In this document: positions 21,824 through 29,206 of the stretch, piece by piece
Position numbering within the stretch: the stretch's first letter is position 1
Layout: the number at the start of each line of letters is the position of its first letter
Assembly: GCA_947569705.1 (NCBI GenBank)
Contig: CANOSP010000013.1
Coordinates: forward strand, 1-51,981
Source of the DNA: an uncultured Erysipelotrichaceae bacterium
GTDB taxonomy: Bacteria; Bacillota_I; Bacilli_A; Erysipelotrichales; Erysipelotrichaceae
Direction of reading: 5' to 3'
DNA: 51,981 bases
Position numbers and translations under genes: made by a program
The notes under the pieces: generated by a model
Database searches by the model: none
What the model saw: the letters and a program-made list of their open reading frames with translations, nothing else
Told to the model about the DNA's origin: nothing

Positions 21824-22426
21824 CTAGCCTTTCATAAAATTTTTCATCAGCGGACTGATTTTCTTATACAGCAGCAATGTGATTACGGAAGCAGCCGCAC
21901 ATTTGATTAAATTGAACGGAACAATACCGAGTATTGCCAGCATCAGCATATCAGTCACATAAGGATTCACAGCCTGACACATCATAATGATGTCAGCGGT
22001 TGTCATACCGTATAAATTCACATAGAACGGAATAATGATAAATACATTCGTGAGTACGGCAGCCAATGCGCAGATCAGCGAACCGCTCAGCATCCCGTAC
22101 AACGCAGAGCGTTTACTCTTATGACGATTATAAATAAATACCGCCGGCAGCACATAGGACAAGCTCAAAATAATATTAGAAAGTTCTCCGGTAAACATGG
22201 AGTTGGTACCGACAAGCGCCAGTTTAACTAAAATTTTGACCAATACGATGAATACTGCAGCGATCGGTCCGAGCGCAAAACCACCGATCATTTCCGGCAA
22301 TGAAGCTAAATCGAAATCCATAAACGGCGGCATAAACGGAATTGGGGTACGAAACAGCATTAGGACTCCTGCCATTCCTCCTAATATTCCAATCAATGCA
22401 ATCTCTTTGACATTCAGCTTTTTCAT
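21824..22426 (-). CDS. ribU: ECF transporter S component for riboflavin
   Basis: A 200-residue integral membrane substrate-binding subunit with about six helices. LIGILGGMAGVLMLFRTPIPFMPPFMDFDLASLPEMIGGFALGP carries the RibU-type N-terminal helix and the loop that contacts the flavin. The gene lies directly under an FMN riboswitch, which makes riboflavin the firm substrate. The energising module (EcfA, EcfA', EcfT) is not in this window. AGGAGG lies eight bases before the ATG at 22426; the longer frame has no such site. A PNPOx-like gene follows nine bases after its stop. Confidence 0.93.
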   Translation of the reverse strand: MKKLNVKEIALIGILGGMAGVLMLFRTPIPFMPPFMDFDLASLPEMIGGFALGPIAAVFIVLVKILVKLALVGTNSMFTGELSNIILSLSYVLPAVFIYNRHKSKRSALYGMLSGSLICALAAVLTNVFIIIPFYVNLYGMTTADIIMMCQAVNPYVTDMLMLAILGIVPFNLIKCAAASVITLLLYKKISPLMKNFMKG

Positions 22427-22498
22427 AAGCAAATGCCTCCTTTCAAAAAAAATACCCAAAAACATAAAAATATGTCTTTGAGCTTACCCACAGATAAT

Positions 22499-22612
22499 GT
22501 CTTTTCTCATCCGGACTATACCGTCGGTACCGGAATTTCACCGGTTCAGCCGCTCACTCCGCGGGTCATGGACTATCACCATCGGTAGGGACTTGCACCC
22601 TGCCACAAAGAC
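22499..22612 (-). promoter_or_regulatory. FMN riboswitch (RFN element)
   Basis: The minus strand carries the conserved RFN pieces in order: GTCTTT of stem P1, GGCAGGGTG, CCTACCGATGGTGATAGTCC, GACCCGCGGAGTGAGCGG, the CCGGTGAAATTCCGG hairpin, GACGGTATAGTCCGGATGA and closing AAAGAC of P1. FMN binding turns off flavin uptake genes in this family. An alternative hairpin with T-rich sequence follows at about 22445-22490 and would be the terminator of the expression platform. The controlled gene, ribU, starts 73 bases beyond the aptamer. Confidence 0.95.
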
Positions 22613-22666
22613 TTCATATTCACTTTTTTTGAAATGAAACAATGCCACAACATTGTCTGCATTACT

Positions 22667-27266: not shown

Positions 27267-27651
27267 GGGGGTGTCCTTGGTTTCGACAAGGGTATGCTTG
27301 ATAGGAATCGCAGCCGAGTGGCTCACGTAACAGCCAATCAATTTAAACGCAAAAACTAAATTAGCAAACGTGTTCGGTGGTAACCGTGCCGTTGCTTTCG
27401 CTGCCTAATTAACCAATAGCGGTTTGCAGCCTCCTTCTTGTACTCTCATTCTGCGGTACTTGAAGCGAGTCTAACCTCAGTAGAATGTATGGGGAATGAC
27501 AGTCTGGATCATTTTCAAGAATTCTAACAGACAGCCTCAATAGGTGTTTGTCCGTTCACTACCTATTGAGTGATCAGTAACGGACTAAGCTGTAGACGTT
27601 CCTATGGGGAGCTACTTTTGGACAGGAGTTCGACTCTCCTCACCTCCACCA
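27267..27651 (+). ncRNA. ssrA: transfer-messenger RNA (tmRNA)
   Basis: About 385 nt. The 5' end GGGGGTG pairs with CACCTCC at 27641-27647 to form the acceptor stem, followed by A and an encoded CCA. The 5' part has GTCCTTGGTTTCGACA and the 3' part has GGAGTTCGACTCTCC, the T arm. The reading frame probably resumes at GCA 27349-27351 after TTTAAAC and runs to TAA at 27406-27408, giving the encoded tag AKTKLANVFGGNRAVAFAA (19 residues); an in-frame GCA at 27364 would give a 14-residue tag. Both end AFAA, a hydrophobic degradation signal. The adjacent smpB and rnr complete the rescue system. Confidence 0.96.
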
Positions 27652-27662
27652 TATAGTCGATT

Positions 27663-27685
27663 AAGCCTTTAAACAAGGCTTTTTT
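27663..27685 (+). terminator. Rho-independent terminator of ssrA
   Basis: AAGCCTT pairs with AAGGCTT around TAAAC and continues into T residues, 12 bases after the CCA end. Confidence 0.85.
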
Positions 27686-27935: not shown

Positions 27936-27964
27936 TTTACATAATAAAAAATATCGATTATAAT
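27936..27964 (+). promoter_or_regulatory. promoter of candidate small RNA
   Basis: TTTACA (27936-27941) and a perfect TATAAT (27959-27964) with a 17-base spacer, in an otherwise gene-free stretch. The predicted start site falls at the foot of a perfect hairpin. Confidence 0.6.
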
Positions 27965-27967
27965 ATG

Positions 27968-28027
27968 ATTGTCATTTGGGGTGGGATGACAATATTTCGG
28001 ATCGAGATTAATTTCTCGGTCTTTTTT
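27968..28027 (+). ncRNA. candidate small RNA of about 60 nt with two hairpins
   Basis: Directly after the promoter, ATTGTCAT and ATGACAAT form a perfect 8-bp stem with a G-rich loop TTGGGGTGGG. Nine bases later GATCGAG and CTCGGTC (one G-U pair) form a second stem that runs into six T, a standard terminator. The unit is closed, has no ribosome binding site or start codon, and matches no RNA family I recognise. The G-rich loop could pair with C-rich targets; that is inference. Confidence 0.45.
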
Positions 28028-28576
28028 AGTAAATAGAGCCTGTTGCTTGCAGAAACAGATAAGAAAATGTTATCTGAGATATAAGATACAGTAACCGTTC
28101 TGTTTTTACTAATCTCTTCACACCCATTTAAAACCGATATTTCTCATTAAAATTAATGTTTCATAAAATTCTAACCACTAATGAATTAGACACCTACCGC
28201 ATTATACTCTCACCACAAAGCGTTCTTTATTACACAAAATTGCATATTCAATAACTGATAGAATACGATGTATAATATCTTATTAAATTTAGACTATTTT
28301 TAATAAGAAAAGAATATAATTCATGAGTTATGAATTATTATCAAGCTTTTTGTACTATTCTGATTAACATGCTTAATAAAATAGAAAGAATATTTAAATT
28401 AAATAATGATGTTAATATCATGACTGAAAAATCACCTGATATTGCTACATTTTTAAATGTATAATTAAATCGATATTCATCTAACAAAAAAGCTGCCGCA
28501 AAATATATCAATCGATAATTGTTATCTGCAAAAGACGCATCATATGATATAATATAAAAATGATGAGGTGCTGCCA

Positions 28577-29206
28577 ATGAAAAATATACTGATCCATGGC
28601 TTGGGGCAGAACGCTTTAAGCTGGAACCAAATATCCGAATATCTAAACAAAAACGCAATAACTCCCCTATGCCCCGATTTATTTTCGCTCCTGCAAAATA
28701 ATGAGAAAGATTTTTCTGCTCTTTATCATGCGTTTTGTACGTATTGTTTAAATCAAAACGACAAGCTGAATCTTTGCGGATTATCCTTAGGCGGTGTTTT
28801 ATCATTAGAATTTGCGAAGCAATATCCCGAAAAAGTAAACTCGTTGATTTTAATCGGTACACCGTATAAGATACCAAAAGCATTATTTAAGCTGCAGGGA
28901 ATCATCTTTCATCTGATGCCGAAATCCGTATTTCTGAAAATGGGCAATGACAAGAAATCATTTATCAACTTGGTTAATTCAATGGGCGCGCTTAAAATAC
29001 ATGAAAGATTGGATAAAATAACTTGTGATTCTTTTGTTTTGTGCGGAATGAAAGATAAAGCAAACAAAAAGGGAGCCGTTTCCTTAAATGAACATATAAA
29101 GAACAGTCAGCTTAAATTCATTGAGGACTCCTCTCATGAGGTCAATATCGAAAATCCGGATAAGCTCGCTGAGATCATTTTAGAGTTCTGGAAAACCAAG
29201 CAATAA
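28577..29206 (+). CDS. alpha/beta hydrolase
   Basis: A 209-residue alpha/beta-fold hydrolase. It starts ILIHGLGQNALSWNQI (oxyanion region His-Gly), has the nucleophile elbow GLSLGG near residue 70, an acidic position in GMKDKAN and the catalytic His in DSSHEVNIENP. The small size and short lid fit carboxylesterase or BioH/MenH-like enzymes; the substrate is unknown. It stands alone between the gene-free stretch and the WYL regulator. AGGTG six bases before the ATG supports this start. Confidence 0.85.
   Translation: MKNILIHGLGQNALSWNQISEYLNKNAITPLCPDLFSLLQNNEKDFSALYHAFCTYCLNQNDKLNLCGLSLGGVLSLEFAKQYPEKVNSLILIGTPYKIPKALFKLQGIIFHLMPKSVFLKMGNDKKSFINLVNSMGALKIHERLDKITCDSFVLCGMKDKANKKGAVSLNEHIKNSQLKFIEDSSHEVNIENPDKLAEIILEFWKTKQ

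What the first reader, a model, noticed from the sequence alone, without database searches (positions are those of the whole stretch)
27936..28027. Promoter-hairpin-terminator unit after ssrA, a possible new small RNA
A near-consensus promoter (TTTACA-17-TATAAT) is followed directly by a perfect 8-bp hairpin with a G-rich loop TTGGGGTGGG and then by a standard terminator. All parts fit a transcript of about 60 nt with no gene in it. It lies in the 0.9-kb gene-free stretch beside the tmRNA. I know of no RNA family with this loop.
Basis: seen in the sequence. Interest (0 to 1): 0.6.

Follow-up and report, generated by a model that had tools for sequence, protein, structure and literature searches.

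The report
Orphan small-RNA unit beside tmRNA gene
Next to the tmRNA gene of an unnamed bacterium lies a real but solitary mini-gene (promoter, hairpin, terminator) for a possible RNA of about 57 letters, found in no relative, sitting in a gene-turnover slot where sister species carry toxin-antitoxin or anti-phage cassettes, so it is probably a leftover or lineage-specific RNA of that kind.

Summary
The unit is in the sequence as described: TTTACA-17-TATAAT (27936-27964), a hairpin (27968-27993) and an intrinsic terminator (27999-28027). None of 1500 dinucleotide shuffles of the slot reproduces it, and it is the only such unit in 452 kb of its own genome. It matches no Rfam family and no other sequence: 272 family genomes by DNA, 315 order genomes by covariance model (weak matches; those inspected share only the terminator), 395 class genomes by pattern, IMG/VR, phages, plasmids. 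So the requested conservation test fails, and novelty rests on absence.

The surroundings are informative. The ssrA-to-hydrolase slot differs in every congener examined: AbiF with its upstream RNA (G005), a decaying Fst-type toxin-antitoxin (G006), Fic (G002), DUF3267 (G004). The window's 'gene-free' slot holds a decayed Fic gene. The other two strong promoter/short-RNA/terminator units that the same blind scan found in congeners' slots are RNA antitoxins. I favour an orphaned antitoxin-type or antisense RNA (about 0.35), over a lineage-specific trans-acting RNA, a promoter or leader whose gene is lost, or an inert relic. Three base pairs of the stem lie upstream of the likely start site. Transcription is untested.

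The parts
27936..27964 (+). sigma-A type promoter TTTACA-17-TATAAT (11/12)
   Evidence: read directly
27968..27993 (+). dyad/hairpin ATTGTCAT-TTGGGGTGGG-ATGACAAT; likely transcript begins about 27971, inside the left arm
27999..28027 (+). intrinsic terminator, 9-pair stem, then TTTTTT
27267..27651 (+). ssrA (tmRNA), left border of the variable slot
27663..27684 (+). ssrA terminator; homology to the congener G002 runs on to about 27723
28225..28464 (+). decayed Fic-family gene: promoter region and 5' coding part (ATG 28323), internally deleted and out of frame; nucleotide homology 28225-28447
28568..29206 (+). alpha/beta hydrolase gene, right border of the slot (homology to congeners starts about 28539)

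Best explanation
A solitary transcription unit for a non-coding RNA of about 57 nt (5' hairpin with a G-rich loop, short linker, terminator hairpin). It most likely is, or descends from, the RNA half (antitoxin or antisense RNA) of a toxin-antitoxin or abortive-infection cassette that passed through the ssrA-hydrolase slot and has lost its protein partner. Shown: the anatomy, its rarity, its absence from relatives, the turnover of the slot, and that the comparable units in two sister slots belong to RNA antitoxins. Inferred: that it is transcribed, that it once had a partner, and that it acted by binding that toxin or its mRNA.
For: The unit is non-random and unique in 452 kb of the genome. 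The slot holds different cargo in each congener examined: AbiF with a preceding promoter-RNA-terminator unit in G005, Fic in G002, DUF3267 in G004, a different ORF in G003. A blind scan of 30 tmRNA-downstream regions for promoter + terminator found strong promoters (>=11/12) only in G000, G005 and G006. The G005 unit precedes AbiF, whose upstream RNA is a proven antitoxin in C. difficile (PMC12373285). The G006 unit belongs to a genus family whose other copies face a small Fst-like toxin ORF, with a ribosome-binding site (toxin matches in 52, 53), as in the par locus (PMC7472228). Decay with RNA parts left behind is seen in the same genome: an Fst-type antitoxin promoter remnant at C9:30068 and the Fic relic 300 nt downstream of the unit.
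Against: No sequence or structural similarity to the AbiF-linked RNAs or the Fst antitoxin RNA. No toxin gene remains next to it: the genome has no Abi_2 protein, and the small ORFs in the slot match nothing credible. The Fic relic's intact homologues share homology only to about 100 nt upstream of their start codon, so the unit is not part of that module. The argument from neighbours rests on two cases.
Confidence: 0.35

Rival explanations
1. A lineage-specific trans-acting small RNA with its own function: the G-rich loop (UUGGGGUGGG) pairs with C-rich stretches of target mRNAs.
For: Complete free-standing unit; intact stems and T-run in a slot that is otherwise decaying, which argues for recent origin or selection.
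Against: No other genome holds it. All six other near matches to the 14-nt loop complement (2 mismatches or fewer) are in the same sense as the overlapping or adjacent mRNA, so none is a pairing site. Pairing with the neighbouring tmRNA is at chance level.
Confidence: 0.25
2. A regulated promoter or leader whose gene is gone: the dyad is a DNA operator over the start site, and/or the hairpin-terminator pair is an attenuator.
For: The perfect dyad begins 3 bp after the -10 box, so about 3 of its 8 pairs would not be transcribed, which suits a DNA-level palindrome; a decayed gene lies downstream in the same direction.
Against: The exact dyad occurs once in the genome; 50 sites at up to 3 mismatches against 32 in the control, and 7 of the first 9 inspected fall in long open frames. 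The Fic relic has its own upstream region from 28225, about 200 nt after the terminator. The two stems fold independently in the predicted structure, with no sign of an alternative antiterminator.
Confidence: 0.2
3. An inert relic or chance assembly that is not transcribed to any effect.
For: No conservation in any relative; it lies in AT-rich decaying DNA.
Against: None of 1500 shuffles reproduces it, none of the other 400 kb scanned has one, and promoter, stems and T-run are all near-perfect.
Confidence: 0.17

Closest known systems
AbiF antitoxin RNA (abiF motif RF03085; RCd22 of C. difficile)
   Same: Strong promoter, short structured RNA, terminator; one sits in the same ssrA slot in the congener G005
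   Different: No Abi_2 gene in this genome; no abiF motif match; a single perfect hairpin; no tandem motif
Fst/par-family antitoxin RNA II (type I toxin-antitoxin)
   Same: Promoter, RNA of roughly 40-65 nt, terminator; a member occupies the same slot in the congener G006
   Different: No convergent Fst-like ORF with ribosome-binding site; the terminator has a T-run on one side only; no sequence similarity
Type III antitoxin RNAs (ToxI, CptI, TenpI)
   Same: Short structured RNA before a terminator
   Different: No tandem repeats and no toxin gene downstream

Membership tests
Free-standing bacterial small RNA | Own promoter and intrinsic terminator with no gene inside | tested here: met
Free-standing bacterial small RNA | Discrete transcript | not testable with these tools
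   no expression data
Free-standing bacterial small RNA | Conservation of stems or loop in relatives | tested here: not met
   no homologue of the whole unit or the first hairpin
abiF RNA (RF03085) | Match to the family model | tested here: inconclusive
   no match at E <= 10, but the model also misses seven loci carrying Abi_2 genes, several with a visible upstream RNA unit
abiF RNA (RF03085) | Adjacent Abi_2/AbiF gene | tested here: not met
   no Abi_2 in the genome
Fst/par type I antitoxin RNA II | Convergent small toxin ORF with ribosome-binding site and shared bidirectional terminator | tested here: not met
   slot ORFs lack a ribosome-binding site; no Fst hit for the convergent 33-aa ORF; T-run on one side only
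Type III antitoxin RNA | Tandem repeat array before a toxin gene | tested here: not met
   single hairpin, no repeat array covering it; no toxin gene

The most novel reading that the evidence does not exclude
A new class of RNA antitoxin or anti-phage RNA, with a G-rich-loop hairpin, that works with a partner encoded elsewhere in the genome or persists as a solitary protector against incoming elements that carry the matching toxin.
Probability: 0.06. Interest if true: 0.65.

Novelty: new member of a known kind. Interest (0 to 1): 0.27.

Why it matters
If transcribed, it would be an orphan RNA from a mobile defence or addiction cassette, and it marks the ssrA-hydrolase slot of this genus as a turnover site for RNA-based toxin-antitoxin and defence systems. 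By itself it is a modest candidate small RNA. The slot is the more useful finding, because two known RNA-antitoxin kinds and two Fic genes (one decayed) occur in it among a handful of species.

Tried and rejected
Exact 15-mer loop search in genome contigs: 119 unrelated chance hits, no use. Exact and relaxed core in IMG/VR: none; a 17-nt promoter-edge pattern gave 13 viral contigs that were not followed up, the pattern being short and AT-rich. Phage and plasmid BLAST of the unit: only partial matches at E >= 0.04; of the whole slot: none. Covariance model from the single sequence: best family matches of 29-31 bits; the ten alignments inspected share the terminator, not the first hairpin. Peptide reading: the only overlapping frame with a start codon (MIVIWGGMTIFRIEINFSVFFSK) starts 1 nt after the -10 box, lacks a ribosome-binding site and runs through the terminator. 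Pairing with tmRNA: 135 of 300 shuffles do as well. Rfam sub-threshold hits on the slot are mostly snoRNA/miRNA-type or remote sRNA chance matches.

Full report
OBSERVATION. The sequence at 27936-28027 reads as stated: TTTACA, 17 bases, TATAAT; ATTGTCAT-TTGGGGTGGG-ATGACAAT; then a 9-pair stem and TTTTTT. The RNA folds at -19.6 to -22.6 kcal/mol, z = -4.5 to -4.9. Dinucleotide shuffles of the 916-base slot never give the combination, 0 of 1500 on both strands even with a relaxed promoter. In the window plus 400 kb of the same genome no other promoter (>=10/12) + stem (>=7) + terminator unit exists; other short promoter-terminator units include a tRNA. One correction: TATAAT ends at 27964, so a start site 6-8 nt later (about 27971) removes roughly three of the eight pairs from the RNA. 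A transcript from 27971 is 57 nt and folds at -19.6.

RELATIVES. DNA search of 272 family genomes gives only partial promoter or terminator matches. A covariance model of the unit gives 96.6 bits on itself and at most 31.5 elsewhere; the ten best alignments inspected match the terminator but not the first hairpin with its G-rich loop. At E <= 0.001 in 315 order genomes nothing better appears. The 24-mer core with up to 3 mismatches occurs in none of 394 other class genomes, nor, by the patterns used, in IMG/VR. Phage and plasmid records have no match to the slot. Rfam has none at E <= 10 that is credible.

THE SLOT. In this genus the stretch between ssrA and an alpha/beta hydrolase gene changes from species to species. 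G005: AbiF (Abi_2, E 6e-37) preceded by two related hairpin motifs, the second directly after a 12/12 promoter. G006: an Fst-type antitoxin unit whose convergent toxin ORF is cut short; related loci in G002 and G004 keep the small toxin ORF with ribosome-binding site, and G005 a similar one. The toxin peptides match Pfam Fst_toxin (E 1e-5) and NCBIfam type_I_tox_Fst (E 1e-5), both below their cut-offs. G002: a Fic protein. G004: a DUF3267 protein. G003: another ORF. G001 has a different neighbour. In the window the slot is 25.7% GC and holds a degraded Fic gene: 28225-28447 is 72-78% identical to the promoter and 5' coding part of intact fic genes elsewhere in this genome (C14) and in G002 and G005. 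Between about 27724 and 28224, including the unit, nothing convincing matches anywhere.

MECHANISM. The unit has no partner gene beside it. The two other strong promoter/short-RNA/terminator units that the same blind scan found in ssrA slots are an AbiF-linked RNA, of the kind shown to be an antitoxin in C. difficile (PMC12373285), and an Fst-type antitoxin (PMC7472228). The same genome also keeps a bare promoter remnant of an Fst-type antitoxin at C9:30068. This makes an orphaned antitoxin-type RNA the best single reading, though only by neighbourhood (0.35). A private trans-acting RNA cannot be excluded; no loop target was found. The dyad's left arm crosses the likely start site, which leaves room for an operator, but it does not recur convincingly.

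MEMBERSHIP. It is not filed as an abiF RNA, an Fst antitoxin or a type III antitoxin, because defining features were tested and not met. Rfam silence on abiF means little: the model also missed seven Abi_2 loci.

VERDICT. A real, well-formed, species-restricted candidate small-RNA unit of unknown partner. Its interest is modest. The slot is the better lead.

Noticed in passing
window 28225-28464: Decayed Fic-family gene (promoter and 5' end kept) inside the supposedly gene-free slot; intact homologues at G000:C14, G005:C43 and G002:C2.
   Followed up: yes
L145 about 2284-2568 (G006), L248, L249, L250: A genus-wide Fst-type type I toxin-antitoxin family with convergent antitoxin RNA; the toxin strand of the G006 copy gives a sub-threshold Rfam match to SpF66_sRNA (RF02442), suggesting that SpF66 may be a par-type RNA.
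   Followed up: partly
L251 (G000:C9:30068-30107): Remnant of an Fst-type antitoxin promoter in the window's own genome without terminator or toxin.
   Followed up: partly
L147 1990-2180, L175, L194: RNAs preceding AbiF genes, often as two copies with a shared core, that Rfam's abiF model (RF03085) does not detect; the family model may need widening.
   Followed up: partly
L153 2000-2110 and L145 about 2005: Fragments that by eye resemble the N-terminal start of tyrosine integrases directly after ssrA, consistent with past integrations at the tmRNA end; not tested with a profile.
   Followed up: no
window 21824-22616 (-): FMN riboswitch before a 213-aa membrane protein, probably a riboflavin transporter.
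   Followed up: no
L285 15833 (+), G000:C1 about 75.8 kb: Another short unit with an 11/12 promoter and a terminator, about 116 nt, content unknown.
   Followed up: no
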